Below, piece after piece: positions 8,216-61,293 of a stretch of DNA of 64,000 bases. Origin of the DNA: Asaia bogorensis. Its GTDB lineage: Bacteria > Pseudomonadota > Alphaproteobacteria > Reyranellales > Reyranellaceae. The notes beneath the pieces were generated by a model that saw only the letters and a program-made list of their open reading frames with translations, was not told the DNA's origin and did not search any database. Each line of letters opens with the position of its first letter. Position 1 is the stretch's first letter. The stretch lies in assembly GCA_945889625.1 (NCBI GenBank), contig CAMDCE010000006.1:60027-124026 (forward strand). The letters run 5' to 3'. The position numbers were made by a program, and so were the translations under genes.

Positions 8216-8312
8216 AGCGTGATGACTTTGGCATTTCGCGTCGGCCCAGCTCTCGCGGCAAAGCGGCGCCCGTGCTGGGCCGACGCGTGGGTCAACTGAA
8301 AGTCATCACGCT
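8216..8312 (-). repeat. Dispersed nested-palindrome element, copy A
   Basis: AGCGTGATGACTTT...AAAGTCATCACGCT outer arms and GCGTCGGCCCAGC...GCTGGGCCGACGC inner arms; inverse orientation relative to copies B and C. Confidence 0.9.
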
Positions 8313-8366
8313 CTAGACGGCGGCTTTCTTGCCAAAGGGTAGCGTTGCGCGTATTCCCCCGCCCCC

Positions 8367-9380
8367 ATGGGATACAGAGTCGCTGTCGTCGGCGCGACCG
8401 GCAATGTCGGTCGCGAAATGCTGCAGGTCTTGGCCGAGAGAAACTTCCCGGCCGATGATGTCGTTGCATTGGCTTCCGCCCGGTCGGTCGGCAAGCAGAC
8501 GTCGTTCGGTGAGAACACCGTTTTGAAAGTCCAGGACCTCGCCAAGTTCGACTTCAAGGGCATCGACATCGTGTTGAGCTCGCCGGGCGCCAAGGTGTCG
8601 GCCGAGCACAGTCCGCGTGCGGTCAAGGCCGGCGCCGTGGTGATCGACAACACCTCGTACTGGCGCATGGATCCCGACGTGCCGCTGGTCGTGCCCGAGG
8701 TCAACGCCAAGGCGATCGCCGGCTACAAGGGCCGCGGCATCATCGCCAATCCCAACTGCTCGACCATCCAGATGGTGGTGGCGTTGAAGCCGATCCACGA
8801 GGCCGCCGGCATCAAGCGCGTCGTGGTGTCGACCTATCAGTCGACCTCCGGCGCCGGCAAAGAGGGCATGGACGAGCTGTTGAACCAGACCAAGAGCTTC
8901 TTCGTGAACCAGACACTCGATCCCAAGAAGTTCACCAAGAACATCTCCTTCAACGTCATTCCCCACATCGACGTCTTCATGGATGACGGCTCGACCAAGG
9001 AAGAATGGAAGATGGTTGTCGAGACCAAGAAGATCCTCGATCCCAGAATCAAGGTGCATGCCACCTGCGTGCGCGTGCCGACCTTCATTGGCCATGCCGA
9101 GGCGATCAACCTCGAACTCGAACGGCCGCTCGACGAGCACGAGGCGCGCCGCGTGCTGGCGGCGGCTCCCGGCATCCTGGTGGTCGACCGGCGCGAGGCG
9201 GGCGGCTACGTGACGCCGCAGGAGGTCACCGGCCAGGACGCCGTGTTCGTGAGCCGTGTGCGCACCGACCCGACAGTCGAGAACGGTCTCGCGCTCTGGG
9301 TGGTGAGCGACAATCTGCGCAAAGGCGCGGCATTGAACGCCGTCCAAATCGCGGAAGAGCTGATCAAGGGCTACATCTAG
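8367..9380 (+). CDS. asd: Aspartate-semialdehyde dehydrogenase
   Basis: MGYRVAVVGATGNVGREMLQVL, NPNCSTIQMVVALKP active-site motif. Confidence 0.95.
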   Translation: MGYRVAVVGATGNVGREMLQVLAERNFPADDVVALASARSVGKQTSFGENTVLKVQDLAKFDFKGIDIVLSSPGAKVSAEHSPRAVKAGAVVIDNTSYWRMDPDVPLVVPEVNAKAIAGYKGRGIIANPNCSTIQMVVALKPIHEAAGIKRVVVSTYQSTSGAGKEGMDELLNQTKSFFVNQTLDPKKFTKNISFNVIPHIDVFMDDGSTKEEWKMVVETKKILDPRIKVHATCVRVPTFIGHAEAINLELERPLDEHEARRVLAAAPGILVVDRREAGGYVTPQEVTGQDAVFVSRVRTDPTVENGLALWVVSDNLRKGAALNAVQIAEELIKGYI

Positions 9381-9457
9381 TATCTCTATTCGGTTTAGCG
9401 CCGATAAGTATTTAATTACAGATGCTTAACGACAATATCTGATGTAATGTCAGAGAT

Positions 9458-10891
9458 GTGAACGACTCGCCGTCGATCCATCCCCTGAGGCCCGAGTCGC
9501 AGAGCGCGCCGACGCCGCTGTTTGCCAACGAGGCCGAGAGCTTCGTCCAGCAGCTGCGGCTGGCCGCTCAGGCCCATCGCGCGGGACGTTTCGACGAGGC
9601 GATACAATCTTATCTGCGTCTGCTGGCGGTGCGTCCCTACCACGCCGAACTGCACAATAATCTCGGCGTGGCGCTCCGCCTGGTCGGCAAGCTCGAAGCG
9701 TCCGTGGCGCATCACCGCCTGTCGCTAGCCTCCGATCCCGGCAATCCGGCGCTGCATTCCAATCTCGGCAATGCGCTGCGCGCCGCCAACCGGCTCGACG
9801 AGGCGGTGAAGCATCACTTCCAGTCGATCGCTCTCAATCGCGACTATGGCGAGGGCTTTTTCAATCTGGCGCTCTGCCTGCGCGATCTCGGCCGGCTCGA
9901 CGAAGCCGTCGGCTGCTTCGGCCGTGCGCTGGCGCTCAATCCCGACAACCGGCGGGCCCGCACCGAACTTGCGGTTGCGCTGCTGATGCGCGGCGAGCTC
10001 GAGCAGGGCTTCGCTGCCTACGAGGCGCGCAAGCGCTTGCCCGAGACGCCAACGCCGGAGTTCGCCCGGCCGGCCTGGGACGGAGGGCCAATCGGCGGCA
10101 TGCGTCTTCTGCTCTATCCCGAGCAGGGCTTGAGCGACGTGCTGCTGTTCTTGCGCTTCGCCCGTGAGCTGAAGCGCCGCGGTGCGGTGATTCTGGTACT
10201 CTGTCAGGCGCCGCTCAAGGATCTGCTCGCCACGGTCGACTACATTGACGGCGTCGTGGCCGAAGGCGAGAAGCTGCCGGAATTCGATCTGCATGCCTCG
10301 ATGGTGTCGTTGCCTCATCTGTGCCGCGCCGATTTCGCCGCCGCGTCCGCCGAGCCGCCTTATCTGACAGCGCCGGCCGACAGCAGCCGCATCAAGCTCG
10401 GCCGGTTGGAGAAGGCCAAACTGCGCATAGGCATCTACTGGGCCGCCATGCCGGGCCAGCCGCTGGACCGCCAGCGCTCGGCGCCCTTCGCGCATTTCCT
10501 GGCGCTGGCCGGCGATCCCGAGCTGCTGGTGTTCAGCCTGCAGGGTGGTGCGGGCCAGAGGGACATCCAACAGTTCGGGGCCGGCGGGCTGGTGCATGAT
10601 GTCGGCCGCGGCATCTTCGATTTTGCCGAAGCGGCGACTGCGCTGTCGCAGCTCGATCTGCTGATCTCGATCGACGCTCCGGTCGCCCATCTCGCCGCGG
10701 CCATGGGAATCAAAACCTGGGTCCTACTGCCGTCGACCGCCGATTGGCGCTGGCAGCTTGGTGGCACGCGGGCGCCCTGGTACCCGACGACGCGACTGTT
10801 TCGCCAGCAAAGGTCGGGCGATTGGGACGGCGTGTTCGCCGCCGTCCGCGATCAGCTCGACAAGCTCAAGGCCGGCTCCCTCATCGTCTGA
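9458..10891 (+). CDS. TPR-repeat protein with glycosyltransferase-9-like C-terminal domain
   Basis: GTG start; repeated TPR motifs (HNNLGVALRLVGKLEASVAHH, HSNLGNALRAANRLDEAVKHH) then a YPEQGLSDVLLFLRFA..ISIDAPVAHLAAAMG region. Confidence 0.75.
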   Translation: MNDSPSIHPLRPESQSAPTPLFANEAESFVQQLRLAAQAHRAGRFDEAIQSYLRLLAVRPYHAELHNNLGVALRLVGKLEASVAHHRLSLASDPGNPALHSNLGNALRAANRLDEAVKHHFQSIALNRDYGEGFFNLALCLRDLGRLDEAVGCFGRALALNPDNRRARTELAVALLMRGELEQGFAAYEARKRLPETPTPEFARPAWDGGPIGGMRLLLYPEQGLSDVLLFLRFARELKRRGAVILVLCQAPLKDLLATVDYIDGVVAEGEKLPEFDLHASMVSLPHLCRADFAAASAEPPYLTAPADSSRIKLGRLEKAKLRIGIYWAAMPGQPLDRQRSAPFAHFLALAGDPELLVFSLQGGAGQRDIQQFGAGGLVHDVGRGIFDFAEAATALSQLDLLISIDAPVAHLAAAMGIKTWVLLPSTADWRWQLGGTRAPWYPTTRLFRQQRSGDWDGVFAAVRDQLDKLKAGSLIV

Positions 10892-11483
10892 TCAAAAAGG
10901 CGCGCAGATCGTCGGCGGTGTCGATGTCGTCCAGCGTCTCGGCCAGACCGACCTGGACTGTCGCGGCGATGTTGCGCAGTGTGTCGGCAAGCGCATGGCG
11001 CGACGACCAACGCACGTCGGCAAACAGATCGGCCGGCAAGGGCCGCCGGCGTCGCGCACCGATCAGCCAGAAGCCGCCGTCGCTCGCCGGGCCAAACACC
11101 AGCTCGTTCTCGGCGAGCAGGCGAAAGGCCTGCGCGATGGACGAGGGCCGCATCGCCGGAATGTCACTGCCGACCAGCACGACCGGCCCCGGCGGTAGGA
11201 TCCGGAACGGCTTCAGCATGCGCCGCCCAAGGTCGCCCGGTCCTTGCGGCTGCACGCTGAGGCGTCGTCCGCGCGCGTGCCATGCCGGATGGCGCAGGGC
11301 CGTATCGGGCGTGACAAAAAGCCAGACGTACCAGCCGGCGCGGTTGGTCATGCGAGACAGCAGATCCGCGAGCATCGCGCGATAGAACCGAGCCGCCTCG
11401 AGCGTTCCGATATCGTGCGCCAGCCGCCGTTTTACCCGGCCGGGCTGCGGCGCGCGGGCAAGGATCACGAGGTGGCGAGTCAT
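10881..11483 (-). CDS. rSAM-associated transferase 1 (TIGR04282/DUF2064 type)
   Basis: LVILARAPQPGRVKRRLAHDIG, LVGSDIPAMRPSSIAQAF, FGPASDGGFWLIGARR. Confidence 0.8.
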   Translation of the reverse strand: MTRHLVILARAPQPGRVKRRLAHDIGTLEAARFYRAMLADLLSRMTNRAGWYVWLFVTPDTALRHPAWHARGRRLSVQPQGPGDLGRRMLKPFRILPPGPVVLVGSDIPAMRPSSIAQAFRLLAENELVFGPASDGGFWLIGARRRRPLPADLFADVRWSSRHALADTLRNIAATVQVGLAETLDDIDTADDLRAFLIRR

Positions 11484-12157
11484 CTATGGTAAAGACGGGC
11501 GATACGGTGCGGCGGCACGCCGGCGAAATAGAGCGCAAGGCAGGAAAGATTGCGTGTCGGCCGTGCGAGCCAGCCGTCGCGCTCGTATCGCGCCACCGAG
11601 GTGATGGCGCAGGCATCGAGGGGCACGAGATTGCGCCGGCCGACGCGCCGCACGAGATCGACATCTTCCATCAGCGGCAGCGACCCGAAGCCGCCGAGCA
11701 GTCGATAGAAGCGGCGCGCAATCAGCAGGCCTTGATCGCCATAGGGCAGGCCGAACGTGTTGCAGCGCCAGCGCGCCAGCCGCTCGATGCGCCGGGCACG
11801 AGTGTCGGAAGAGTCGAGGCGGAGGCGAAAATATCCGGCCTTCGTTGCGTTCAGGGGCTCGGAGGTGAAGCGGTCAAGGGCTTCGACCCAACCCTCGCCC
11901 GGTACAGTGTCGGCATGAAGGAAGAGAACCCACGGTGCGTTTCCAGCCTCGCTCCCGGCGGCAAGCTGGCCGCCGCGTCCAGGTGCCGTGACGAGGACGG
12001 TGGCGCCGTTCGCAGCGGCAATGGCAGCGGTGTCGTCTCGCGATCCGCCATCGCAGACGGTGATTGTCGCGGGATTGGCCTGCCGTACCACTGACAAAGT
12101 GCGGGAAAGCGTGGCGGCGGCGTCGAGCGTCGGGATCACGACGTCGAGCGCGGGCAT
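11480..12157 (-). CDS. rSAM-associated family-2 glycosyltransferase (TIGR04283 type)
   Basis: Internal start MPALDVVIPTLDAAATLSRTLS; ITVCDGGSRDDTAAIA; FLHADT; QGLLIARRFYRLLGGF. The 367-aa ORF is N-terminally over-extended. Confidence 0.82.
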   Translation of the reverse strand: MPALDVVIPTLDAAATLSRTLSVVRQANPATITVCDGGSRDDTAAIAAANGATVLVTAPGRGGQLAAGSEAGNAPWVLFLHADTVPGEGWVEALDRFTSEPLNATKAGYFRLRLDSSDTRARRIERLARWRCNTFGLPYGDQGLLIARRFYRLLGGFGSLPLMEDVDLVRRVGRRNLVPLDACAITSVARYERDGWLARPTRNLSCLALYFAGVPPHRIARLYHR

Positions 12158-13095
12158 CACTGACTGCAGGCGGCGCCGCCCAGGACGCAGAACTTGGCGC
12201 AATGCGGATGATTGAGCCGCACGGCGCCGCGCGCCTCGGCGAGGGTCTCGCCAAGCTCGAACTGCGAATCGTACGGCAGCAGTGTGCAGGCGACGACAGC
12301 CGGCCGCGCGGCGTCCTTGCGCTTGATCACCATGCGCGACGAAGCGCACATTACGCTGTCGGGAGATTTCTTCAGGATGCCCCAGCAGGAGACTGTGATT
12401 TCCGGCACATCGACCGTGGGGTCCATCTCCGGAAACAGCACCAGCTCCATCGGGCTTGTTGCGTCGACGAGGGCGCCGAGCTCGGCGAACAGCCGCGCGT
12501 AGCCCGCGCGCACCTCCCCCTCGGACTCGTCGGAGAACCGGCGGCCAGCGACATGGAGGCTGAAGCCGTTGGCGGCAAGCCACGCCACGCCATCCAGTGT
12601 CGGCTTCCAGCTTCGCGTGCCCCGTTCGGCTTCGTGCAACGCCTGTGCGTAATGGTCGATCGATACACGAATCGTAAGGTTGGCGCCGTGGCGCGCATAC
12701 AGGGCGAGCAATGCGGGCTTCATCTTGTGCATCGGTTTCATGGCGTTGGTGAGCACCATCGCCTTGAAGCCTCGCGACAAGACGTCCTCCAGCATCCGGG
12801 GCAGGTCGGGATTCATGAACGGCTCGCCGCCGGTGAAGCCGATCAGCATGGTGCCCAGCCCCTCGCGCTCGATTTCATCGAGATAGGCCGTCACCTCGGC
12901 CGCCGTCAGATAGGCCAGCCGATCGTTGAGCGGCGAGGATTCGATATAGCAGTTGCGGCACGTGAGATTGCAGAGCGTGCCGGTGTTGAACCACAGGGTC
13001 GCGAGCGATTTCAGCGCCACCTGCGCACGTCGTTCGCCCTTGGCGGTAACCAGCGCGTCCTTGAATTTCGCAGGATCGAGTTGGAGCGACGTCAT
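12157..13095 (-). CDS. Radical SAM protein with Cys-rich C-terminus
   Basis: CNLTCRNC (C-x3-C-x2-C), FTGGEPFMNPDLPRML; C-terminal HPHCAKFCVLGGAAC. Stop overlaps downstream ATG (TGATG). Confidence 0.85.
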   Translation of the reverse strand: MTSLQLDPAKFKDALVTAKGERRAQVALKSLATLWFNTGTLCNLTCRNCYIESSPLNDRLAYLTAAEVTAYLDEIEREGLGTMLIGFTGGEPFMNPDLPRMLEDVLSRGFKAMVLTNAMKPMHKMKPALLALYARHGANLTIRVSIDHYAQALHEAERGTRSWKPTLDGVAWLAANGFSLHVAGRRFSDESEGEVRAGYARLFAELGALVDATSPMELVLFPEMDPTVDVPEITVSCWGILKKSPDSVMCASSRMVIKRKDAARPAVVACTLLPYDSQFELGETLAEARGAVRLNHPHCAKFCVLGGAACSQ

Positions 13096-13174
13096 CGCGG
13101 CAGGTTAGCACAGCCGCGGCTCGACCGCGCCAGAGAGCTTCGATACGGTTCCTTCAAGGACAAGGGGAACCACG

Positions 13175-13765
13175 ATGCTCGACGGCCAATCGCTCGACAA
13201 GATCCTACGCAACGCGCGCACCCACAACGGCTTCCAGGACAGGCCGGTCACCGACGATCAACTTCGCGCGATCTACGAGATCATGAAATGGGGGCCGACC
13301 TCGGCCAATTCGCAGCCCGCCCGCATTGTTTTCATCCGCACCAAGGAGGGCAAGGACAAGCTTCGGCCTGCGCTGAGCGCCGGCAACACGGCCAAGACCA
13401 TGTCGGCACCGGTGACGGCGATAGTGGCCTACGACACGCGCTTCTACGAACATCTGCCCAGGACCTTTCCGCACGACCAGTCGGCGCAGAGCTGGTTCAG
13501 CGGGCAGGGCAAGGAGGAGGTCGCCTTCCTGACCGCCTTCCGCAATGGGACCTTGCAGGGCGCCTACCTGATTATCGCCGCACGTTCGTTGGGTCTCGAC
13601 GTCGGCGCCATGAGCGGCTTCACCAATGCCATCGTCGACCAGGCGTTCTTCCCGGACGGCCGCTTCAAGTCGAACTTCCTGTGCAACATCGGCTACGGCG
13701 ATCCGTCGAAACTGTTCAACCGCAGCCCGCGGCTGTCGTTCGAGGATGCCTGCACGCTCGCCTGA
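13175..13765 (+). CDS. rutE: Nitroreductase-family malonic semialdehyde reductase, RutE-like
   Basis: [57 protein letters not shown]. Confidence 0.75.
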
Positions 13766-13767
13766 GG

Positions 13768-14463
13768 CTATTGCCCGAGCAGCTGTCCGATCTCGCGCCA
13801 GGGCAGCGGCAGGAGCGACACCAGCGCCACCACTCCGAAGGCCAGGATGATGGCGCCGGCGGTACGGTTCAGCCACAGCAGACCGGTACCGGTGAAGCGC
13901 GCGCGGAGCGCCACCGCCGTCGAGCCGAGGATCGTCCACCACGCCAGCGCGCCGCAGAACACGCCCGCCACCAGAAGCGCGGCATCGGGCAGGCTGCTGC
14001 CGACGCCTGCGAGATTGCGGCCGGCGAAGGCGGCACCAAACGCCATCACCGTCAGCGGATTGAACACGGTGATGAAAAAACTCGAGCTGGTGTAGTGGAG
14101 ATGCGTCGCCACCCTGTGCTCACGGTCGTCGGCCACCGGGTCGCCGACGGTGCGCGGGCGATGGCGCATCGTCGTCCAGCCCATGATCACCAGCACGGTG
14201 CCGCCGATGCCGCGCAGCCAAGCCTCGTGCCGCTCCACGAACTGCTCGACGAAGGACAGGCCGAAGGCCGCCACGGCGCCGAACACCGCGTCGCCCAGCG
14301 CGGCGCCCACGCCCGTGAGATAGCCCGCCACGGCGCCGACCGTTATCGCGCGACGGATCAGGAGAGCGGCCGCCGGTCCGACCGGAACCGCGATCATGAA
14401 GCCGATGACCGCGCCCTCGATCGCCAGCGCTATCGGATTGAAGGCGAACCCGGGAACGGTCAT
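13768..14463 (-). CDS. LysE-family translocator
   Basis: GFMIAVPVGPAAALLIRRAITVGAVAGYLTGVGAALGDAVFG; start at MTVPGF. Confidence 0.85.
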   Translation of the reverse strand: MTVPGFAFNPIALAIEGAVIGFMIAVPVGPAAALLIRRAITVGAVAGYLTGVGAALGDAVFGAVAAFGLSFVEQFVERHEAWLRGIGGTVLVIMGWTTMRHRPRTVGDPVADDREHRVATHLHYTSSSFFITVFNPLTVMAFGAAFAGRNLAGVGSSLPDAALLVAGVFCGALAWWTILGSTAVALRARFTGTGLLWLNRTAGAIILAFGVVALVSLLPLPWREIGQLLGQ

Positions 14464-14470
14464 TGCCGCG

Positions 14471-15322: not shown

Positions 15323-15389
15323 GGCCGAAGCCACCTTGCCACAAGGAAGCTCCTCATTATAGTCCGCCGCGTTTCTGGGGAGCCTTGAG

Positions 15390-17317: not shown

Positions 17318-17370
17318 GCGAATTTCGCTGACAAATCCGGGGCTTATCGCGCGTGCACCGTCGACATTCG

Positions 17371-17398
17371 TTGACTTGGGGGCCCCGCGCGCTAAAAA
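17371..17398 (+). promoter_or_regulatory. Candidate sigma70-like promoter for sdhCDAB
   Basis: TTGACT (17371-17376), 16-nt spacer, TAAAAA (17393-17398). Confidence 0.35.
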
Positions 17399-17434
17399 AG
17401 TCCGGCCGCTAGAGGCTTTCGAGGTTTTCACGCG

Positions 17435-30674: not shown

Positions 30675-32465
30675 GTGCAAAGACGCCATCTGTTGAGACT
30701 CACTGGAGGCCTGCCGCTGATGTCGGCGGCCTACGCCCAGACCGCGACTCCGGTCTTCCGCCGCGTGCGACCGGGCGACGCCGGCTGGCCCTCGGCCGCG
30801 CAATGGCAGGAACTGAACGGCCAGGTGGGTGGCCGACTGATCAAGGTGGCCACGCCGCTGCACGCCTGCACCGCCGCGCCCGGCGGCGCCGACTGCGCCG
30901 CCGTCTTCAAGGGCCTGAAGAACCCCTATTACATCCGCGATCATGTGGCGCTGACCCAAACTAGCGGCTGGGCCGATGCCTGGTCGTCGGCGCCCAGCGT
31001 CTGGGCAGTCGCGCCCACGGGTGCTGCCGACGTCGCCGCCGCGGTCAATTTCGCCCGCCAGCACAAGCTGCGGCTGGTCGTGAAAGGCGGCGGCCACAGC
31101 TACCAGGGCACGTCGAACGCGCCCGACTCGCTGCTCGTCTGGACACGGGCGATGGACACCATCGAACTGCACGATGCCTTCGTCGGCGTGGCCTGCACGA
31201 CCCCGCCGCAACCGGCGGTGTCGATTGGCGCCGGCGCCATCTGGCGCGACGCCTACGGTAGGGTCACCAAGGCCGGCCGCTACGTGCAGGGCGGCGGTTG
31301 TCTGACGGTCGGCGTCGCGGGTCTCATCCAGAGCGGCGGCTTCGGCAGCTTCTCCAAGCGCTTCGGTCTCGCCGCCGCGGGCCTGATCGAAGCCGAGGTC
31401 GTGACCGCCGACGGCAAGATCCTGATCGCCAATGCCTGCAGCAACCCCGACCTGTTCTGGGGCATCAAGGGTGGCGGCGGCAGCAGCCTCGGTGTCGTGA
31501 CGCGGGTCACCTTGCGTACGCACGAACTGCCGGAAGTGGTGGGCGGGGCCTTCGTGGTCGTACGGGCAACGTCCGACGCGGCGTTCCGGCGGCTGATCGA
31601 GCGCTTCGTCGCCTTCTATCGCGACAGCCTGTTCAATCCGACTTGGGGCGAGCAGGTGAAGTTCCATCCCGACAACACGCTCGAAATCTCGATGGTGTTC
31701 CAGGGCCTGAAGCAGGGCGCGGCAGGCGCGGTCTGGAAGCCGTTCCTCGATTGGGTGGCGACCGCGCCCGCCGACTTCGCCAACATCATTCCGCCGACCA
31801 TCGTCGACGTGCCGGCCCGCTTCTTCTGGGACGCCGAATTCATGAGGAAGAATGCGCCCGACACGGTCCTGGCGGACGACCGGCCCAACGCGCCGGTCGA
31901 GAACATCTTTTGGAAAGGCAATCTCAACGAAACAGGCTGGCTGCTGCATGCCTACGAGTCGACTTGGATGCCGGCATCGTTGCTGGCGCCCGAGCAGCAG
32001 GGCCGGCTGGCCGATGCGCTGTTCGCCAGTTCGCGCCACTGGACGCAGTCGCTGCACTTCAACAAGGGCCTGGCCGGCGCACCGGCGGAAGAGATCGCTG
32101 CCGCCCGCGACACCGCGACCAATCCGGCGGCGACGGAAGCTTTCGCACTCGCCATCACCGCTGCTTCGAGCCCGCCGGCCTTTCCCGGCATCGCCGGCCA
32201 CGAACCCGACCTCGTGAAGGCGCGCGCCAACGCCCGGAAGGTGCGCGCCGCGATGGCCGAGCTGCGCAGGCTTGTGCCCGAGCCCGGCGCCTACGTCTCG
32301 GAATCGAACTACTTCGAGGAAAACTGGCAGCGCGCCTTCTGGGGCGCCAACTATGCGCGTCTGCGCAAGGTGAAGGCCAAGTACGACCCGGATGGATTGT
32401 TCTTCGTCCATCACGGCGTCGGCAGCGAGGACTGGAGTCCCGACGGCTTCAGCCGGGGCGCCTAA
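30675..32465 (+). CDS. Berberine-bridge-enzyme-like FAD-binding oxidoreductase
   Basis: VVKGGGHSYQGTSNAPDSLLVWTRAM, GGGCLTVGVAGLIQSGGFGSFSKRFG, C-terminal FEENWQRAFWGANYARLRKVKAKYDPDGLF; GTG start after GGAGGGA. Confidence 0.85.
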   Translation: MQRRHLLRLTGGLPLMSAAYAQTATPVFRRVRPGDAGWPSAAQWQELNGQVGGRLIKVATPLHACTAAPGGADCAAVFKGLKNPYYIRDHVALTQTSGWADAWSSAPSVWAVAPTGAADVAAAVNFARQHKLRLVVKGGGHSYQGTSNAPDSLLVWTRAMDTIELHDAFVGVACTTPPQPAVSIGAGAIWRDAYGRVTKAGRYVQGGGCLTVGVAGLIQSGGFGSFSKRFGLAAAGLIEAEVVTADGKILIANACSNPDLFWGIKGGGGSSLGVVTRVTLRTHELPEVVGGAFVVVRATSDAAFRRLIERFVAFYRDSLFNPTWGEQVKFHPDNTLEISMVFQGLKQGAAGAVWKPFLDWVATAPADFANIIPPTIVDVPARFFWDAEFMRKNAPDTVLADDRPNAPVENIFWKGNLNETGWLLHAYESTWMPASLLAPEQQGRLADALFASSRHWTQSLHFNKGLAGAPAEEIAAARDTATNPAATEAFALAITAASSPPAFPGIAGHEPDLVKARANARKVRAAMAELRRLVPEPGAYVSESNYFEENWQRAFWGANYARLRKVKAKYDPDGLFFVHHGVGSEDWSPDGFSRGA

Positions 32466-32563
32466 AGCGCGATGATATTCATTCGAATCGCGCCGTCGGC
32501 CCGGCTCGTGCAGCACTTCGCTGCGGGAGCCGGGTCGACGGCTGAAGCAAAAGTCATCGCGCT
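32466..32563 (+). repeat. Dispersed nested-palindrome element, copy B
   Basis: AGCGCGATGATATT...AAAGTCATCGCGCT with inner GCCGTCGGCCCGGCTC/GAGCCGGGTCGACGGC. Confidence 0.9.
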
Positions 32564-33078
32564 GTAGAAGCCGGCTTGAAGGCGGCGTAGAGCAGGAGCG
32601 GTCGGCCATCCTCGCGTGCGAGATCCCTCTGGCGCACCATGCCGACCTTCTCCAGCGAGCGCCGGCCGGGAATGTTTTCCGGCCGGGTGATCGCCACCAC
32701 GCGATCGAGACCCACGATGTCGAAGGCGAAGGCGATACAAGCGCGGGCGAGTTCCGGCCCGTAGCCCTTGCCTTGCGCGTCGGGCGTGAAGGCCGCGCGC
32801 AAAGCCACGCCCTGGTCGCCTTCATGGACGCGCAAGCCGCCCAGCCCAACGAGCGCGCCGCCCAGGCGCTCCGTGATCGTCCACGACCCGAAGCCCAACG
32901 CCGGCCATTCGGCCTCGTAGTCGGCCACCATCACGTCGCTTTGGCTGCGCGTCAGAACGCCGTGCTTGAGCAGATTCATCACCCGCGCATCGGCATGCAG
33001 AACGGCCAGACGATCGGCGTCCGCCCAGGTGATGGGCGAGAGGCGCAACCGGTCGGTAATGAGCGTATGACGGTCCAA
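32554..33078 (-). CDS. GNAT-family acetyltransferase (RimJ/RimL type)
   Basis: [57 protein letters not shown]. Confidence 0.85.
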
Positions 33079-39371: not shown

Positions 39372-40565
39372 TTGGCCGACAAGAAGCTGCCCACCGTGCT
39401 GCTGCGTGCCGGCGAGGATCGCCGCGTCCGCTCCGGCCATCCCTGGGCGTTCTCCAACGAGATCCTGATGGACGCCGAGACCAAGGCTCTGCCGCCGGGC
39501 TCGCTGGCGACCCTGCGTGCGCCGGGCGGCGAGGCGCTGGGGCTCGTCACCTTCAACCCGCACTCGTTGATCGCCACCCGGCTGCTGTCGTCTAATCCGG
39601 AGGCGGTGGTCGATGCGCTGTTCTTCGGGCGGCGGCTGGCGCAGGCGATGGCCTTGCGCGACCGGCTGGTCGGCGTTCCGTTCTATCGCCTGATCCATGC
39701 CGAGGCCGATGGATTGCCCGGCGTGATCGTCGATCGCTTTGGCGACGCCCTTGCGGTGCAGGTCAACAGCCTCGGCATGGACCGGCTCACGCCGGTGCTG
39801 CTCGAAGCGCTGGAGGCTGAACTCTCGCCCAGGACGATCGTTCTCAAGAACGATTCGCCGGTGCGCGAACTCGAGGGTCTCAGGCGCGAGGTCGTGGTGG
39901 CCAAGGGTGAACTCTCCGGTCCCATCGAGCTCCTCGAGAATGGTGCGAAGTTCACGGCCGACCTGTCGGACGGCCAGAAGACCGGCTGGTTCTACGACCA
40001 GCGCGACAACCGTCGTTTCATGGCGGGTTTGGCGAAGGGCGCCGATGTGCTCGATGTCTTCAGCTACAGCGGCGGCTTTGGCGTGCTGGCGGCCAAGCAA
40101 GGTGCGAAATCAGTGATCTGCATCGACCGCTCGCAGCCGGCGCTCGAGGCCGCCAAGCGGGCTGCTGAATTGAACGGCGTCGAGAAGATCGTCTCTTTCG
40201 AGAAGAGCGAGGCGTTCGACGCGCTGGAGAAGCTCGGCTCGGCGGGCAAGAAGTTCGATGTCGTGATCTGCGATCCGCCGGCCTTCGTGAAAAGCCGCAA
40301 GGACCTCAAGATTGGAGCACAAGGCTATCGCAAGCTGGTGCGGCTGGCCGCGCCCCTGGTGGCGCGCGGCGGTTTCTTCTTCGTGGCTTCGTGCTCGCAT
40401 CTCGTCGATCCGCCGTTGTTTGCCGAGCAGGTGCGCCGCGGCTTGCGCGACGCCTCGCGCAATGGCCGGATACTGCTGAGCTCGGGTGCAGCGCTGGATC
40501 ATCCCGTGCATCCGGCTTTGCCCGAGACGGCCTATCTCAAGGCCCTCACCCTGCAGCTCGACTAA
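39372..40565 (+). CDS. rlmI: Class I SAM-dependent rRNA methyltransferase, RlmI-like (PUA domain)
   Basis: TTG start preceded by AAAGGAGAA; HPWAFSNEI, DVLDVFSYSGGFGVLAAKQGA, DVVICDPPAFVKSRKD. Confidence 0.85.
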   Translation: MADKKLPTVLLRAGEDRRVRSGHPWAFSNEILMDAETKALPPGSLATLRAPGGEALGLVTFNPHSLIATRLLSSNPEAVVDALFFGRRLAQAMALRDRLVGVPFYRLIHAEADGLPGVIVDRFGDALAVQVNSLGMDRLTPVLLEALEAELSPRTIVLKNDSPVRELEGLRREVVVAKGELSGPIELLENGAKFTADLSDGQKTGWFYDQRDNRRFMAGLAKGADVLDVFSYSGGFGVLAAKQGAKSVICIDRSQPALEAAKRAAELNGVEKIVSFEKSEAFDALEKLGSAGKKFDVVICDPPAFVKSRKDLKIGAQGYRKLVRLAAPLVARGGFFFVASCSHLVDPPLFAEQVRRGLRDASRNGRILLSSGAALDHPVHPALPETAYLKALTLQLD

Positions 40566-40663
40566 AGCGCGATGACTTTCCCTCGAATCGCGCCGTCGGC
40601 CCGGCTCGTGCACCGCTTCGCTGCGGGAGCCGGGCCGACGGCTGAAGCAAAAGTCATCGCGCT
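40566..40663 (+). repeat. Dispersed nested-palindrome element, copy C
   Basis: AGCGCGATGACTTT...AAAGTCATCGCGCT; perfect inner arms GCCGTCGGCCCGGCTC/GAGCCGGGCCGACGGC. Confidence 0.95.
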
Positions 40664-40670
40664 GTAGTTC

Positions 40671-52534: not shown

Positions 52535-52547
52535 GAGGATCGCACAG

Positions 52548-54160: not shown

Positions 54161-55224
54161 CAGGCAGGCTCCCTGGCGCCCTCGCCATGGTCGTCACTGC
54201 CTGTGTGGCGGCCGCGGCGGCGCGTGCCCAGACGCCAGTCATCGTCGACACGCATGTCCATGTCGATGGCCGACTCGAGCGCCGGGATGTCAATTGGGCC
54301 GGTGCCGCGCGCATTGCCATCGATCGCATGAACGAAGCGGGCGTGCGGCTCAGCCTCGTGCTGCCGCCGCCCCAGCCGGTGAACTTTCCCGCGCCTTGGG
54401 AATGCGACGCCTATGCTGGCGCGCTTCAGGCCTTTCCCGGCCGGTTCGCCCCGATCTGCGGCGGCGGCACGATCAATCCGCTGATCTATGAAAGCGCCGG
54501 TCGTCCGACCCTCGATGCCGCCACCATGCAGCGGCTCGAGGCACTTGTCGCGGGCTTCGCTTCGCGAGGCGCGGTGGCGATCGGCGAGCTGACGGCCCAG
54601 CATTTCTCGTTCAATGCGCGCCATCCCTATTTGGCCGTGACGCCCGACCATCCGGCATTCCTGAAGCTCGCCGACCTGGCCGCGCGCCATCACCTGCCGC
54701 TGGTCATGCACATGGAAGCCGTGCGCGGCAGCTTCGACGTGCCGGAAGGCCTGCGCCGCATTTCGGGCCAGAATCCCGCGCGCCTCGACGACAATCTCGC
54801 GGCCTTCGAGCGCTTGCTTGCCCACAATCGTGGAGCGACGATCGTGTGGGCGCATTTCGGCTGGGACAATACCGGCCAGCGCAACGGCCGCCTTATGAAG
54901 GAACTGTTCGACCGCCATGCCAATCTCTATGCCGACATCAAGCTGCAGCCGGGCAGCCCGTCGGCGCGCTTCATCGCCGACCAGAACGGCGTGCTGCGGC
55001 CTGAATTCATCGCCTCGATCGAGGCCGGCGCCAGCCGCTACATGATCGGTTCCGATGCGTTCTACGCCGTGCGGCCGGTTGCCGCCGAGCGTGAGATCGA
55101 CCGGTTGGCAGCGGTCAGCAAGGCGTTGCTGGACCGCCTGAGTCCCGACACGCGGCGGCAGGTCGGGTCGGAGAACGCGGCCAGGGTCTATCGGCTGCGC
55201 GAACGCGGTCTGCTGCAGCCGTAG
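54157..55224 (+). CDS. Secreted amidohydrolase-family protein
   Basis: Signal peptide; VIVDTHVHVDGRL metal-binding motif; MIGSDAFYAV. Confidence 0.8.
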   Translation: MTGRLPGALAMVVTACVAAAAARAQTPVIVDTHVHVDGRLERRDVNWAGAARIAIDRMNEAGVRLSLVLPPPQPVNFPAPWECDAYAGALQAFPGRFAPICGGGTINPLIYESAGRPTLDAATMQRLEALVAGFASRGAVAIGELTAQHFSFNARHPYLAVTPDHPAFLKLADLAARHHLPLVMHMEAVRGSFDVPEGLRRISGQNPARLDDNLAAFERLLAHNRGATIVWAHFGWDNTGQRNGRLMKELFDRHANLYADIKLQPGSPSARFIADQNGVLRPEFIASIEAGASRYMIGSDAFYAVRPVAAEREIDRLAAVSKALLDRLSPDTRRQVGSENAARVYRLRERGLLQP

Positions 55225-55339
55225 AGATCGCGACCAGGGCTTTTCCCAGAACGGCCAATGTCGGGAATCTTTTCGTCCAATTAGTTCTTATCGTCCGACC
55301 CGCCTTGCCCGGCGCGCCGACACGGGCAAGATACGGACC

Positions 55340-56683
55340 ATGAGCAGGAAACAACTCCGCCTCGGCGCCTTCATGCGCCCGGTCAGCATCCACACGGCGG
55401 CCTGGCGCTATCCCGGCGGCACGCCGGATGCCAACTTCAACTTGAAGGCACTGATCCAGTACGCCCAGACCCTGGAGCGCGGGAAGTTCGACGCCTTCTT
55501 CATGGCCGATCATCTGGCGGTGCTGAACATGCCGATGGAGGCTCTGAAGCGGAGCGCCACGGTGACCTCGTTCGATCCGCTGACGCTGTTGCCCGCCCTT
55601 GCCCAGCACACCGAGCATCTCGGCCTGATCGCCACGGCTTCGACCACCTTCGAGCCCGCCTACACCATCGCCCGCCGTTTTGCCTCGCTCGACCACATTT
55701 CGGGCGGCCGCGCCGGCTGGAACCTGGTGACGACCTCCAATCCCGACGCTGCGCTCAACTTCGGCATGGACGAGCAGATGGAGCATGGTGAGCGTTATGC
55801 CCGCGCCCGCGAGTTCTTCGATGTCGTTACCGGCCTGTGGGATTCGTGGGCCGACGACGCCTTCATCCGCGACGTCGACAAAGGCCTCTATTTCGATCCC
55901 GACAAGCTCCATGTGCTGGATCACAAGGGCAAGTATCTGAAGGTGCGCGGACCCCTCAACATCGCTCGCCCGATCCAGGGCTGGCCGGTGATGGTCCAGG
56001 CCGGCGCCTCGGATGCCGGCCGCCAGCTCGCCGCCGAGACCGCCGAGGTCGTGTTCGCTGCCGGCGGTCCGATCGAAGCGGGCAGGGCGTTCTATGCCGA
56101 CGTGAAGGGACGGGCGGCCAAGGCCGGCCGCGACCCCGATCACATCAAGATCCTGCCCGGCGCCTTCACCATCATCGGCGAGTCCCTCGACGAGGCGAAG
56201 GACAAGCGCGCGAAGCTCGACAGCCTGGTGAGCTATGACAGCGGCATCGCCGCCCTGTCGATCGCCGTCGGCCAGGACGCGCGCAAGTTCGATCCCGACG
56301 GGCCACTGCCCGAGATCCCCGAGACCAACCAGAGCAAGAGCGGCCGCGAACGGGTGATCGCGCTGTCCAGGCGCGAGAATCTCAGCGTACGTCAGATCGC
56401 CGGCCGTCTCGGCGGCTATGGCGGGCTTGCCATGATGGGCACGCCCATGATGATCGCTGACCAGATGGAGGAGTGGTTGGTGACCAATGCCAGCGACGGC
56501 TTCAACGTCATGTTCCCCTACCTGCCGGGCGGGCTCGACGATTTCGTCGACAAGGTCGTGCCCGAGCTGCAGCGCCGCGGCATCTTCCGCCGCGAGTACG
56601 AGGGCGGCACCTTGCGCGAGAATCTCGGCCTGCCGCGCCCGGAGAATCGGTTCTTCACCGGCACGGCAAAGGCGGCGGAGTAG
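55340..56683 (+). CDS. LLM-class FMN-dependent monooxygenase (NtaA/SnaA/DszA-like)
   Basis: AWRYPGGTPDANFNLKALIQYAQTLERGKFDAFFMADHLA; GRAGWNLVTTSNPDAALNFG. Confidence 0.9.
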   Translation: MSRKQLRLGAFMRPVSIHTAAWRYPGGTPDANFNLKALIQYAQTLERGKFDAFFMADHLAVLNMPMEALKRSATVTSFDPLTLLPALAQHTEHLGLIATASTTFEPAYTIARRFASLDHISGGRAGWNLVTTSNPDAALNFGMDEQMEHGERYARAREFFDVVTGLWDSWADDAFIRDVDKGLYFDPDKLHVLDHKGKYLKVRGPLNIARPIQGWPVMVQAGASDAGRQLAAETAEVVFAAGGPIEAGRAFYADVKGRAAKAGRDPDHIKILPGAFTIIGESLDEAKDKRAKLDSLVSYDSGIAALSIAVGQDARKFDPDGPLPEIPETNQSKSGRERVIALSRRENLSVRQIAGRLGGYGGLAMMGTPMMIADQMEEWLVTNASDGFNVMFPYLPGGLDDFVDKVVPELQRRGIFRREYEGGTLRENLGLPRPENRFFTGTAKAAE

Positions 56684-56687
56684 GCTC

Positions 56688-57533
56688 ATGTCCTTCGACG
56701 TTGCGGTCGGCAGCGCAACCGACGTCATGCGCATGGCCGATTGGGCGGCCGACGAGGGCTGGAACCCGGGCAACACCGATGTGCTGGCCTTCCTCGCCGC
56801 CGATCCCGGCGCTTTCCTGATCGGCCGTGTCGATGGCGAACCGCAGCTCTGCATCTCGGTGGTGCGTTATGGCGCGGGCTTCGGCTTCCTAGGTTTCTAC
56901 ATCGCCCGGTCTCCCGTGCGCGGCAAAGGTTACGGCATCCAGGTTTGGCGCGCCGGCATGGCGCGTCTGGCGGGCCGCAACATCGGGCTCGATGGCGTGG
57001 TGGCCCAGCAGGGCAACTACCGAAAGTCGGGCTTTCGGCTGGCCTGGAACAACGTCCGCCACGAAGGCGTGCCGCCGGCGAGTGCAAAGCCGCCGGCCGG
57101 AGTCACCCTGATCGACGCCCGCAGCGTGCCGTTCGACCGGTTGGCAGCCTACGACCGGCGCTTCTTTCCCGAAGCCCGCGATCATTTCCTGGCGCCGTGG
57201 ATCGCCTTGCCCGAACGTCGCGCGCTGGTGGCGTTGCGCGGCGGCGAACTCGTCGGGTTCGCCGTGATGCGGGCTTGCCGCGCGGCCTCGCGCATCGGCC
57301 CGCTCTATGCCGCCTCGCCGGACATAGCCGCGTCTCTTGTGGCCGACCTCGCGGCCGCGACGCCGGGCAAGCCGGTGGCGGTCGACGTGCCCGACATCAA
57401 CAAGGCCGCGGTGAAGCTCGCCGAGCAGCTCGGCCTCGAGCCCTCGTTCGAAACGGCGCGGATGTATACCGGCCCCGACCCGAAGGTCGATCTCGGCGGG
57501 CTGTTCGGCGTCACCAGTCTCGAATTGGGATGA
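56688..57533 (+). CDS. GNAT-family N-acetyltransferase (two-domain)
   Basis: FGFLGFYIARSPVRGKGYGIQVWRAGMARL acetyl-CoA site. Confidence 0.82.
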   Translation: MSFDVAVGSATDVMRMADWAADEGWNPGNTDVLAFLAADPGAFLIGRVDGEPQLCISVVRYGAGFGFLGFYIARSPVRGKGYGIQVWRAGMARLAGRNIGLDGVVAQQGNYRKSGFRLAWNNVRHEGVPPASAKPPAGVTLIDARSVPFDRLAAYDRRFFPEARDHFLAPWIALPERRALVALRGGELVGFAVMRACRAASRIGPLYAASPDIAASLVADLAAATPGKPVAVDVPDINKAAVKLAEQLGLEPSFETARMYTGPDPKVDLGGLFGVTSLELG

Positions 57534-57631
57534 TCCGCGGCGACCTCGTTAAGGGCGCAATATTGTTGCGCCGGGGGTGGTGCCGGATTTCGGACAAATT
57601 GGTTAAAACCCTTATGCCATCGGTATACAAG

Positions 57632-57653
57632 GTGTCCGAGGCAAGTCGGACAC
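57632..57653. repeat. 8-bp inverted repeat between convergent genes
   Basis: GTGTCCGA-ggcaag-TCGGACAC. Confidence 0.6.
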
Positions 57654-57704
57654 TTTCGGACGGTTGGCCCCTGACAGGTCGCGGTCAGGGTCGTCCTTCC
57701 AGTC

Positions 57705-58589
57705 CTACCGGCCGCTGGCGCGCGGCACCAGCGCCAGCCAGAGCGAGATCACCGTCGAGGCGATGGCCACTACCTGCAGCGCCGACACGGGCTCGTGCAG
57801 GATGATCACGCCGCTCACCACGGCGACGATGGGAATGGCGATCGACGACAGGGCGGCGACTTGTGCCGGCAGGAGCTTGACCAGCGCGAACCAGGTCACG
57901 GTGCCCAGCGCCATGGGAACGGCGCCGGTATAGAGCGTGGCGGCCAGGGCTGCTGTCGAGGGCCAATGCGTCGGCATGCCGTCGATCACGATGGCGCCGA
58001 GGGTGATCGGCAGCCACGAGGCCACAACCTGCCAGAAGGTGAGCGACAGGCCCATGCCCGGCCAGCTCGTGCGCTTGACGATGAAAGTGCCGATGGCCCA
58101 GCAGAAGCCCGCGAACAGGCCCCAGAAAAGGCCCCACGGCGCGTTGGCGTAGCTCGCGAAGTTGGGCGCCATCAGCGCCACGACCGCCGCGGCGCCGATC
58201 AGGATGGCGGCCAGCAGCCGGCCGGTCAGCGGCTGGCGGTAGACGACGAAGCCCAGCACCGCCACCCACAGCGGCATGGTGTAAGACAGCACCGAGGCAT
58301 GTCCCGACGGGATGTAGAGCACGGCGAATGAGGTGGCGATGTTCCACACGGTGATGTTCATCATCGAGGCGGCGATCAGCGGCAGCCACTTTCCCCTGGG
58401 CACCATGAGAGATTCGCCGCGCAGCCGGACGGTGGCGTAGAGCACCAGCACCGCCGTCGAGAGCACGATCGTGCGGAAGGTAAGGACCGGCATCTCCGCA
58501 AGCGCGATGCTGAACAGCGGCCAGTTGGTGCCCCACACGAGCGTGAGGGCCGCCAGCAGCGCCAGCACCTTGGGAGACGCGCGGTCCAC
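57705..58589 (-). CDS. EamA/DMT-superfamily transporter
   Basis: 10-TM pattern, LTLVWGTNWPLFSIALAEMPVLTFRTIVL. Confidence 0.88.
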   Translation of the reverse strand: MDRASPKVLALLAALTLVWGTNWPLFSIALAEMPVLTFRTIVLSTAVLVLYATVRLRGESLMVPRGKWLPLIAASMMNITVWNIATSFAVLYIPSGHASVLSYTMPLWVAVLGFVVYRQPLTGRLLAAILIGAAAVVALMAPNFASYANAPWGLFWGLFAGFCWAIGTFIVKRTSWPGMGLSLTFWQVVASWLPITLGAIVIDGMPTHWPSTAALAATLYTGAVPMALGTVTWFALVKLLPAQVAALSSIAIPIVAVVSGVIILHEPVSALQVVAIASTVISLWLALVPRASGR

Positions 58590-58598
58590 GATGAAGAA

Positions 58599-59030
58599 TT
58601 AGGCCTGGTGTTCTTCGGGCGCCTGCAGATAGCAGCCGTCGATGCGCCAGCTTCCGTCGGGCAGCTGCGTCATCGGGTAAATGGCGGTGACCGGCCGGCC
58701 GTCGGGGCCGACGACGTGGACCTTCTGCGCCGGCTGGCCGTGCATGTCGACGATTTCGCGAAAATCGAAGACCCGCGGCCGATAGACGGGTTGGTAGCCT
58801 TGGCGCACCATGTCCATGAAAACGTCGGGCTGGCCGAACATGCCCTGGATCGTTGGCGAGGCGTAGCCGAACGCCGCGTCGCCGTCGTCGCGACGGAAGG
58901 CATCGACCTGGCCCTGGATGATTTGGCGGATCGCCGCACGGTCGGCGGCCGACACGGCCGGCTCCTGCGCCACCGCGGTCGTCGCGAGGCCGAGCAGCAA
59001 GCCGAACAGGGCAAAGAGACGAAAGGCCAT
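58599..59030 (-). CDS. DUF4864-like secreted protein
   Basis: Signal peptide; IRQIIQGQVDAFRRDDGDAAFGYASPTIQGMFG. Confidence 0.78.
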   Translation of the reverse strand: MAFRLFALFGLLLGLATTAVAQEPAVSAADRAAIRQIIQGQVDAFRRDDGDAAFGYASPTIQGMFGQPDVFMDMVRQGYQPVYRPRVFDFREIVDMHGQPAQKVHVVGPDGRPVTAIYPMTQLPDGSWRIDGCYLQAPEEHQA

Positions 59031-59082
59031 GGCTGTTACCTTAAGCCCATGACTCTCCATACGCGACTGCAGGAACGGCAGA

Positions 59083-59853
59083 TCAGCGTGGCGTGTAAGG
59101 CAGGGCGCCCAGCTGAATGGGGTTGCCGCGGGCCGGCGGCGCCTCGACGACCCGCCGCGGCGACGGCGGTGCGCCGCGTTGCATGCCGCCGGGGTTGCCG
59201 AGCCGACCCACATTGATGCCGTAGGAAAGTGCCGCCAGATTGGACCGTTCGCGGGCAAGGAAGCCGTTCTGGCGCGAGATCTCGGCGTTGAGATCGCCGA
59301 TCAGGCGGTCGACATTCTGGATCGAGCGGCTGGTGTCGCCCTCGATGCCGCGCAGCTGCTGGTGATCTGCCTCGACGGCGCCGCCGACGGCATAGGTGGC
59401 GCGCACGTTGTCGATCAGATAGCCCGCCACCGAGGCCTGGGTCGTCACCTGGCTCGCCAGAGAATTGAGCTGGCCGACGCCGAGCGTTATGGCGTCGAGC
59501 TTGGCCTGCGCCTCGTTCCACTGGGTGACCAGTTCGGGATTGCCGGGAGTCGTGCCGGCCTGCAGGCGAGAGGAAATGGCGCTGACCAGGCTGCCATAGG
59601 CCGAGGCATCGGTGCTGACCTGGCTGCGCGTCGAGCTGAGCAGATTCTGCTGCGTGGAGATGCCGGCAGCCAACGCCGTCTGATCGGCGCGGAGTTGTTG
59701 CACGCGCTGACGAACGGTCTGGGTCCCGGTCTGGCTGACTGCCGGATTCGCGGCGGGGCCGCCGCCAGCAGGTCCGAATCCCCCCCCGGGTTCACATCCG
59801 CTCAGAACGACCGCCACCAAGAGGACAGCGGATCGTTTGACTCTTAGCGCCAT
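59083..59853 (-). CDS. Putative coiled-coil lipoprotein
   Basis: MALRVKRSAVLLVAVVLSGC lipobox; long helical region; the 289-aa ORF start is upstream-extended. Confidence 0.65.
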   Translation of the reverse strand: MALRVKRSAVLLVAVVLSGCEPGGGFGPAGGGPAANPAVSQTGTQTVRQRVQQLRADQTALAAGISTQQNLLSSTRSQVSTDASAYGSLVSAISSRLQAGTTPGNPELVTQWNEAQAKLDAITLGVGQLNSLASQVTTQASVAGYLIDNVRATYAVGGAVEADHQQLRGIEGDTSRSIQNVDRLIGDLNAEISRQNGFLARERSNLAALSYGINVGRLGNPGGMQRGAPPSPRRVVEAPPARGNPIQLGALPYTPR

Positions 59854-60162
59854 CGTTGGCCTCGAAACTGCGCTGGCAACATCTATTGGGCGCCGCCGAT
59901 CCAGCCAGCCGGAAGATGTCCGGACAGCCTTGTTCGGGACACCAATCCCCAAATCCAGTGGGGGTCATGCTACTTGAAAGCCGGCGAAACCGAAAGCGTC
60001 GATTTCCAAGGAAACAGAGCCACTTGGCACCCTTTGTACGCGCTTCTTGAGGGAGCATTACACGGGCCGTCCGCGCCTTCTCGTTGGCTTGCAACGCCGA
60101 AGCAGTTTCATTAGGGTGCGCGCCTCTTCGCCGGACCCTTGCCAGGCAAGGCGCCCGGTCGT

Positions 60163-60239
60163 GCGCCCGTAGCTCAACTGGATAGAGCATCTGACTACGG
60201 ATCAGAAGGTTAGGAGTTCGAATCTCTTCGGGCGCGCCA
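60163..60239 (+). tRNA. tRNA-Arg (anticodon ACG), CCA encoded
   Basis: GCGCCCG acceptor pairing CGGGCGC, anticodon arm TCTGA-CTACGGA-TCAGA, GGTTCGAATC-type T-arm region (GTTCGAATC), terminal GCCA. Confidence 0.95.
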
Positions 60240-60358
60240 TTCTTTCTCTCAAGCAATCAAAGACTTAGAGGCAACCGCCTAATCGCCGAAGGAGGGGTGG
60301 ATTTTCTTGCCTTGATGGCAGCCCCCCCGGGTGCATGGTCATCGTCTAGCTCTTCAAT

Positions 60359-60595
60359 TCATGAACCCGTGGACACCAAGCACAGCGGCGGCAGCTGTCG
60401 CCAAGCCAGCCGCGAACAATCCAAAACTTGCGTCGAGAAGCAACCCTCGATGTTCTCCAACAATGCGAGGCGGCGTGCCGGTTCAGTCATCACGCTGATG
60501 ACAGGCAAAACAACCGGCGTCACGAAGGCAACCCCGCCGATCCAGTGGATTACCGCTACGATGTGCACCGCGCGGGCCAAGGTGATGTCGTCCAT
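60359..60595 (-). pseudogene. Truncated membrane-protein gene
   Basis: MDDITLARAVHIVAVIHWIGGVAFVTPVVLPVISVMTEPARRLALLENIEGCFS then loses membrane-protein character; another frame contains FGLFAAGLATAAAAVLGVHGFMN. Confidence 0.5.
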
Positions 60596-60732
60596 GTCCG
60601 TCTGCTTGCGATCCGTAGCACCCGCGGTCGCGAGGCGGTGCGAGAATGGCCGATCGAAGTGCCGCCACGTCGCAACTCGTGACGATTCGGACTCCGATGG
60701 GTGGCCGATGATCGCGACTAAGATGAGGCGCG

Positions 60733-61116
60733 CTATCCGGACGGATGAATACTTTGCGCGTGAACGTCGACTACCTTGAATGGCCGTTCGACGCCGTCGT
60801 GCTCGGTCACCGTTACATATTCGCCGATAACGAACCTGTGCCTGTCGAAACGGAAGATCGGCTCGTCATCATCATCCCCGGGTCTGTAGGAAAAAGCCCA
60901 CTGCCCGTGGGGGTGGTGGATTAGCGTGCCGGCCTCGTCGTCGGTTTTGTCCCAGAACCGCCGGACGGTGCAGGCGGCTTTGTTCTTCGACCAGCCCTTG
61001 GGATCGAGATGACCCTTGGCGTCGAGGGGCGCGGTGAACTCGTAGCCGTGGTGAGAGCTGCCGTTCGGAAACTCCGGCGTTCGGGCCAGTTCCAGGCGAA
61101 TCCTCTTGAGGCTCAT
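60733..61116 (-). CDS. Conserved-looking hypothetical protein
   Basis: MSLKRIRLELARTPEFPNGSSHHGYEFTAPLDAKGHLDPKGWSKNKAACTVRRFW..., SD GGAG upstream of ATG at 61116. Confidence 0.75.
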   Translation of the reverse strand: MSLKRIRLELARTPEFPNGSSHHGYEFTAPLDAKGHLDPKGWSKNKAACTVRRFWDKTDDEAGTLIHHPHGQWAFSYRPGDDDDEPIFRFDRHRFVIGEYVTVTEHDGVERPFKVVDVHAQSIHPSG

Positions 61117-61171
61117 GTTTTGCTCCACGCTTGCGATGGCGGCTTTATCCCATCGCGCCAGCCTGCCAGCC

Positions 61172-61185
61172 ATGATCCAGATCAA
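61172..61185 (-). promoter_or_regulatory. FNR/FixK-like box upstream of the 60733..61116 gene
   Basis: Minus strand TTGAT-CTGG-ATCAT; -10-like GATAAA at 61149-61144. Confidence 0.6.
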
Positions 61186-61195
61186 ACGCCGTCAC

Positions 61196-61293
61196 AGCGC
61201 GATGACTTTTGCTTCAGCCGTTGGCCCGGCTCCAGCAGCAAAGCGGTGCACGAGCCGGGCCGACGGCGCGTTTCGAGGGAAAGGCATCGCGCT
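61196..61293 (-). repeat. Dispersed nested-palindrome element, copy D
   Basis: Reverse complement closely matches copy C; inner arms GCCGTTGGCCCGGCTC/GAGCCGGGCCGACGGC. Confidence 0.92.

What the first reader, a model, noticed from the sequence alone, without database searches (positions are those of the whole stretch)
8216..61293. Four-copy dispersed nested-palindrome element with compensatory base changes, each copy abutting a TAA stop codon
Copies at 8216-8312, 32466-32563, 40566-40663 and 61196-61293. Outer arms AGCGCGATGACTTT/AAAGTCATCGCGCT and inner arms GCCGTCGGCCCGGCTC/GAGCCGGGCCGACGGC can form a two-level hairpin. Copy A is AGCGTGATGACTTT/AAAGTCATCACGCT and CCCAGC/GCTGGG: both arms changed together, so pairing is kept. 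Copies A and D are inverted relative to B and C. In all four the element starts directly after a TAA stop codon (Bug protein, BBE oxidase, rlmI-like gene, and the 62-aa gene on the minus strand). This fits a mobilised or structurally selected 3'-end element, possibly an RNA end-stabiliser/terminator or a REP/MITE-like family. Palindromic repeats are known in alphaproteobacteria; whether this family is described cannot be judged here.
Basis: partly seen in the sequence, partly recalled or inferred. Interest (0 to 1): 0.72.

Follow-up and report, generated by a model that had tools for sequence, protein, structure and literature searches.

The report
IS630-type MITE inserted at stop codons
The four repeats are copies of a small non-autonomous jumping element (about 90 copies in this alphaproteobacterial genome) that appears to land in the sequence CTAG, often a gene's stop codon here, so that an insertion puts a hairpin after the gene without changing its protein.

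Summary
The element is best explained as an IS630/Tc1-type MITE, not a selected RNA 3'-end structure. The draft genome (5.2 Mb, 132 contigs) holds roughly 90 copies of 46-157 bp, in at least two subfamilies. Their ends read C-TA-N-[AGCGCGATGACTTT...AAAGTCATCGCGCT]-N-TA-G. The TA fits the duplicated target dinucleotide of IS630 transposition, and CTAG its preferred site. Four congeneric genomes carry full-length IS630 elements (1.03-1.06 kb, DDE_3 transposase) with related ends; the best matches the MITE at 11/12 and 10/12 terminal bases. Relatives lacking the repeat show empty sites at window copies B and C, with the gene's stop codon at the same point. The stop-codon link follows from the target: inserting into C|TA|G turns TAG into TAA. 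The stop falls exactly on the boundary in 40 of 62 copies; 51 of 136 ordinary CTAG sites are stop codons too. The residual excess fits loss of harmful insertions. Arm covariation exceeds shuffles but partly marks subfamilies. Some copies contain further palindromes. No matching transposase was found in this genome's assembly; transposition and RNA effects are untested. Known kind (compare pneumococcal RUP); this lineage seems undescribed.

The parts
8215..8313 (-). Copy A: MITE of subfamily 2 (ends AGCGTGATGACTTT), between the flanking TA dinucleotides at 8213-8214 and 8314-8315
   Evidence: subfamily
8213..8215 (+). TAA stop of the upstream Bug-type gene, made of the flanking TA plus the first base of copy A
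   Evidence: sequence; gene frame ends at offset 0 (L082)
32465..32564 (+). Copy B: MITE of subfamily 1; flanking TA at 32463-32464 and 32565-32566
   Evidence: empty sites in relatives
32463..32465 (+). TAA stop of the BBE-type oxidase gene; relatives have TAG or TGA at this codon and no repeat
40565..40664 (+). Copy C: MITE of subfamily 1; flanking TA at 40563-40564 and 40665-40666
   Evidence: empty sites
40563..40565 (+). TAA stop of the rlmI-like gene; the next gene starts at ATG 40672 just past the element
61195..61294 (-). Copy D: MITE of subfamily 1, inverted relative to B and C; flanking TA at 61295-61296, decayed to CA at 61193-61194
61294..61296 (-). TAA stop of the small minus-strand gene, made of the flanking TA plus the element's first base
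   Evidence: sequence; gene frame ends at offset 0 (L085)

Best explanation
The element is a family of non-autonomous IS630/Tc1-type MITEs. Its outer arms are the terminal inverted repeats of an IS630-family insertion sequence whose transposase acts in trans. The transposase cuts the element out and pastes it into the TA of a CTAG, duplicating the TA (C-TA-element-TA-G). CTAG often contains a stop codon here (C + TAG). An insertion there turns TAG into TAA when the 'TAA' end of subfamily 1 faces the gene (subfamily 2 has stop-making ends on both sides), so the protein is unchanged and the insertion survives. Inner palindromes vary by species and subfamily, and some copies hold further short palindromes. 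Shown by sequence: copy number, ends, TA/CTAG context, full-length IS630 elements with related ends in four congeners, empty sites at two window copies, stop-codon arithmetic. Inferred: transposition in trans, the TA duplication itself, and survival by selection.
For: End motif 88 + 91 times in the genome against 2 + 5 in the control. Of 124 ends, C outside at 105 and TA at 107; 32 of 62 copies are CTA...TAG on both sides. Full-length IS630 elements with CTAG flanks and ends matching the MITE at 11/12 and 10/12 (G003), 9 and 10 (G021), 10 and 10 (G008), 9 and 9 (G020) bases; DDE_3 domain in each. Empty sites: copy C and copy B. Same ends with different interiors in Enhydrobacter aerosaccus, Bradyrhizobium and others. 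Stop exactly on the boundary on 44 of 83 gene-3'-facing sides, no other offset more than 3 times; ordinary CTAG sites are stops in 51 of 136 cases. No in-frame read-through from any of the 39 'TAC' ends. IS630-family insertion into TA with duplication, and IS630 preference for CTAG, are established (PMC2170065 and its reference list).
Against: No IS630 element with matching ends was found in the window's own draft genome. The partner elements' ends resemble but do not equal the MITE's. The congeners used for empty sites are diverged (about 71-84% identity), so the TA duplication is not seen base for base. The gene frames come from a simple model (82% frame accuracy on training pieces). An end-to-end palindromic interior is more structure than transposition needs.
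Confidence: 0.9

Rival explanations
1. The hairpins are kept as RNA 3'-end elements (terminators or RNase-blocking stabilisers) of the upstream genes. Mobility is how they spread, but selection for a 3'-end role is why they sit at stop codons.
For: Very stable fold; pairing covaries beyond shuffles, 9 pairs and 14 cells against 2.2 and 2.4; exact abutment to stops; unrelated palindromes fill the copy C junction in other congeners.
Against: No terminator-like U-tract at copies B or C. Copy C lies between genes that are 0-5 nt apart in many relatives, where a terminator would be costly. Interiors are not conserved between species while the ends are. Part of the covariation is the split between subfamilies, and the shuffle control ignores relatedness. 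CTAG targeting already predicts stop-codon positions.
Confidence: 0.12
2. The insertion machinery itself prefers TAG stop codons (for example through an extended target motif or transcription-coupled DNA state), beyond the CTAG preference.
For: Excess of stop-codon sites over ordinary CTAG sites: 40/62 against 51/136, p = 0.0007; 40/58 against 51/111, p = 0.006, after dropping sites whose frame runs through.
Against: The excess is about 1.5-1.7 fold and is expected if insertions inside genes are lost; fixed insertions cannot separate preference from survival.
Confidence: 0.1
3. A REP/BIME family moved by a RAYT (Y1 tyrosine transposase).
For: Palindromes near genes; one end of subfamily 1 reads GTAG; one Y1_Tnp gene exists in the genome. 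GTAG REPs are reported to supply TAG stops to flanking ORFs (PMC3733652).
Against: Elements are 46-157 bp with long inverted ends bounded by TA on both sides, not 20-40 bp units tagged at one end by GTAG; subfamily 2 ends in CTAG/TTAG-type flanks; no end motif near the Y1_Tnp gene.
Confidence: 0.03

Closest known systems
RUP of Streptococcus pneumoniae (MITE proposed to be moved by IS630-Spn1; PMC2229807, PMC3049150)
   Same: About 100 bp, about 100 copies, inverted ends similar to those of an IS630 element, insertion at TA.
   Different: RUP is AT-rich with stops in all six frames; here the elements are 66% G+C, subfamily 1 is open from its TAC end, CTAG and stop codons are prominent, and the partner IS is seen only in congeners.
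IS630 family / Tc1-mariner elements (ISY100, IS630)
   Same: TA target with duplication; IS630 preference for CTAG (PMC2170065 and its reference list); end sequences related to congeneric IS630 elements.
   Different: The repeat carries no transposase.
GTAG/CGTC-tagged REPs (PMC3733652)
   Same: Abundant palindromes close to genes; GTAG REP termini are reported to provide TAG stops to flanking ORFs.
   Different: Length, TA-bounded inverted ends on both sides, IS630 rather than RAYT association.
Rickettsia palindromic elements (PMC2229807)
   Same: 105-146 bp palindromes with an open frame.
   Different: RPEs occur in frame inside protein genes; no clear case of that was found here.

Membership tests
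IS630/Tc1-type MITE | Terminal inverted repeats matching an IS630-family element | tested here: met
   Ends match IS630 elements of G003, G008, G021, G020 at 9-11 of the first 12 bases; transposase domain DDE_3. Not found in the own draft genome.
IS630/Tc1-type MITE | TA flanking both ends, target duplicated | tested here: met
   TA at 107 of 124 ends, CTA...TAG on both sides in 32 of 62 copies; duplication itself inferred, with empty sites in diverged relatives.
IS630/Tc1-type MITE | Short, no coding capacity for a transposase, many dispersed copies | tested here: met
   46-157 bp, about 90 copies.
IS630/Tc1-type MITE | Mobilised in trans by the transposase | not testable with these tools
   Needs a transposition assay.
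GTAG REP | 20-40 bp unit with GTAG at one end, RAYT-associated | tested here: not met
   Lengths and TA-bounded ends; no end motif at the genome's only Y1_Tnp gene found.
Intrinsic terminator | Hairpin followed by a T-run | tested here: not met
   No call at copies B or C; copies A and D not scanned.
Known RNA family (Rfam 15) | Match at gathering score | tested here: not met
   Only one tRNA in the window.

The most novel reading that the evidence does not exclude
A mobile palindrome family whose ends restore a stop codon on insertion (one end in subfamily 1, both in subfamily 2), making stop codons safe harbours; the copy C junction, filled by unrelated palindrome families in different congeners, would then mark gene ends as favoured sites where such hairpins gain a 3'-end role.
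Probability: 0.13. Interest if true: 0.55.

Novelty: new member of a known kind. Interest (0 to 1): 0.33.

Why it matters
It gives a simple, quantitative reason why some dispersed palindromes sit exactly on stop codons: the transposition target contains the stop. That is a caution for reading stop-adjacent hairpins as terminators or mRNA stabilisers. It also supplies an alphaproteobacterial MITE family with identifiable IS630 relatives, usable to test MITE mobilisation and how palindromes come to lie inside palindromes.

Tried and rejected
Partner IS in the own genome: the DDE_3 search gave five matches, none with matching ends. TIR pairs about 1.1 kb apart in L262 (Acetobacteraceae MAG) and L290 (ZJ1.bin73): no transposase recognised among their open frames by eye. 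Plasmid and phage collections: no match. Equal 1180-bp spacing between two pairs of copies (contigs C1 and C46): unrelated genes of the same length. Empty-site search at the L077 copy: its two flanking genes match different contigs in relatives, so no junction was read. Protein extension through the TAC end: not seen. First codon-usage and Markov gene models were too weak and were replaced. Literature: of the papers holding the end sequence, none is on repeats or mobile elements by title; none links my genus guess Reyranella with MITEs. Tenzen and Ohtsubo 1991 is not held and is cited only through PMC2170065.

Full report
Observation. All four repeats are present as described. They belong to a family of roughly 90 copies in the window's own genome (5.2 Mb, 132 contigs, about 94% complete): a 16-base end motif occurs 88 + 91 times with up to 2 mismatches against 2 + 5 for its reversed control, and BLAST with copy C finds some 40 places, one elsewhere identical over 104 nt. 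I took flanking DNA for most of the listed places and kept 62 clean copies of 46-157 bp.

Anatomy. What all copies share is the two ends: TA-N-AGCGCGATGACTTT and its inverse (subfamily 1), or TA-N-AGCGTGATGACTTT (subfamily 2, which includes copy A; at least 16 of the 62). The shortest copies (46-64 bp) consist of little more than the two ends. Longer copies hold an inner palindrome, and some hold further palindromes: a 27-bp hairpin around GGCGCGATGG..CCATCGCGCC in the central loop, a 30-bp TACAGCGCGATGACCATAGTCATCGCGCTG in one arm (a TIR-only version of the same kind of end), and GGATGGGC..GCCCATCC and CCAATGGCTC..GAGCCATTGG hairpins. Reading these as nested insertions is my inference from their TA-like borders, one of which is usually decayed.

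Boundary. Over 124 ends, the base outside is C at 105 and the dinucleotide is TA at 107; 32 of 62 copies are CTA...TAG on both sides. IS630-family transposition inserts into TA and duplicates it, and IS630 prefers TA in CTAG (PMC2170065 and its reference list).

Partner elements. A search for the ends in congeners found a 1026-bp element in G003 with ends AGCGGGATGACTTT and AGCGAGATGACG, flanked by CTA and TAG, carrying IS630-type transposase segments. A protein search gave three more with recognisable ends: G021 (1055 bp), G008 (1056), G020 (1050). Their first 12 bases match the MITE at 11 and 10 (G003), 9 and 10 (G021), 10 and 10 (G008), 9 and 9 (G020); the DDE_3 domain is clear in all four. 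Frames are split, as is common in IS630; the G003 copy also looks shifted near its end. A GAATCG motif lies at about the same distance from one end in these elements and in the MITE (read by eye). The own genome's IS630 elements have different ends.

Empty sites. At copy C many relatives with both genes have the rlmI-like gene's stop followed within 0-5 nt by the next gene, for example CTCGAC-TAA-CA-ATG; a few have other insertions there. At copy B, most relatives' BBE-type genes end in TAG or TGA at the very codon where the window has TAA plus the element. So these insertions did not change the proteins. The relatives are diverged (about 71-84% identity), so the TA duplication is inferred rather than seen base for base.

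Why stop codons. CTAG holds a stop. With a 3-periodic Markov gene model (82% frame accuracy on 120-bp pieces, measured on training frames), a gene's 3' end faces the element on 83 sides; on 44 of them the stop starts exactly at the flanking T, and no other offset occurs more than 3 times. 40 of 62 copies have such a side; 4 have both. Ordinary CTAG sites in the same DNA are stops in 51 of 136 cases (p = 0.0007; 40/58 against 51/111, p = 0.006, after dropping sites whose frame runs through). Most of the association is therefore target sequence; the rest fits loss of insertions in genes, though a modest preference or benefit is not excluded. In subfamily 1 one end makes TAA and the other TAC; of 39 TAC ends none shows an in-frame read-through. 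Five boundary stops have become TGA, still a stop, while several other ends have decayed to non-stops.

RNA role. The fold is strong and pairing co-varies beyond shuffles (9 pairs and 14 cells against 2.2 and 2.4), but that control ignores relatedness and some of the signal is the subfamily split. Interiors differ between G000, Enhydrobacter aerosaccus (G011, matched to its named record at five loci), G028 and other taxa while the ends are kept. No terminator was called at copies B and C, and Rfam has no match. A role at mRNA 3' ends is not needed to explain the data; it has not been tested.

Distribution. Exact end motifs occur in Enhydrobacter, Bradyrhizobium (35-bp TIR-only forms), Telmatospirillum, several Rhodospirillales MAGs and others. 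Among 61 genomes searched (own and relatives), 7 had a match, dominated by G000 and G011.

Verdict. An IS630/Tc1-type MITE family of a kind already known: RUP is the closest described case (PMC2229807, PMC3049150), and supply of stop codons by palindromic repeats is on record for GTAG REPs (PMC3733652). This lineage appears undescribed in the papers I could search.

Noticed in passing
window 40563-40670 and orthologous junctions in L216-L218, L227, L228: The junction that holds copy C carries unrelated palindromes in congeners: TGTCATCCCGAGCG..CGCTCGGGATGACA in G020, G014 and G012, and a CCTCACCCTGAGGAGC/CTTCGAGACG type in G033 and G028. It may be a hot spot for palindromic repeats directly behind a stop codon.
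   Followed up: partly
L070, L080, L094, L112, L119 and other loci with 124-157 bp copies: Short palindromes of several sequences lie inside MITE copies, including a 30-bp TIR-only version of the same ends.
   Followed up: partly
L081 2587-2683: A long open frame runs 132 nt past the left boundary through the element, so this copy may lie inside the 3' end of a gene.
   Followed up: no
L070 and L118: Two unrelated genes of about 391 codons are each flanked by two MITE copies exactly 1180 bp apart; probably coincidence.
   Followed up: partly
window 3735-5557: Two pairs of direct repeats (300 and 115 nt, 76-77% identity) with the same spacing of 1205: probably a tandem gene duplication.
   Followed up: no
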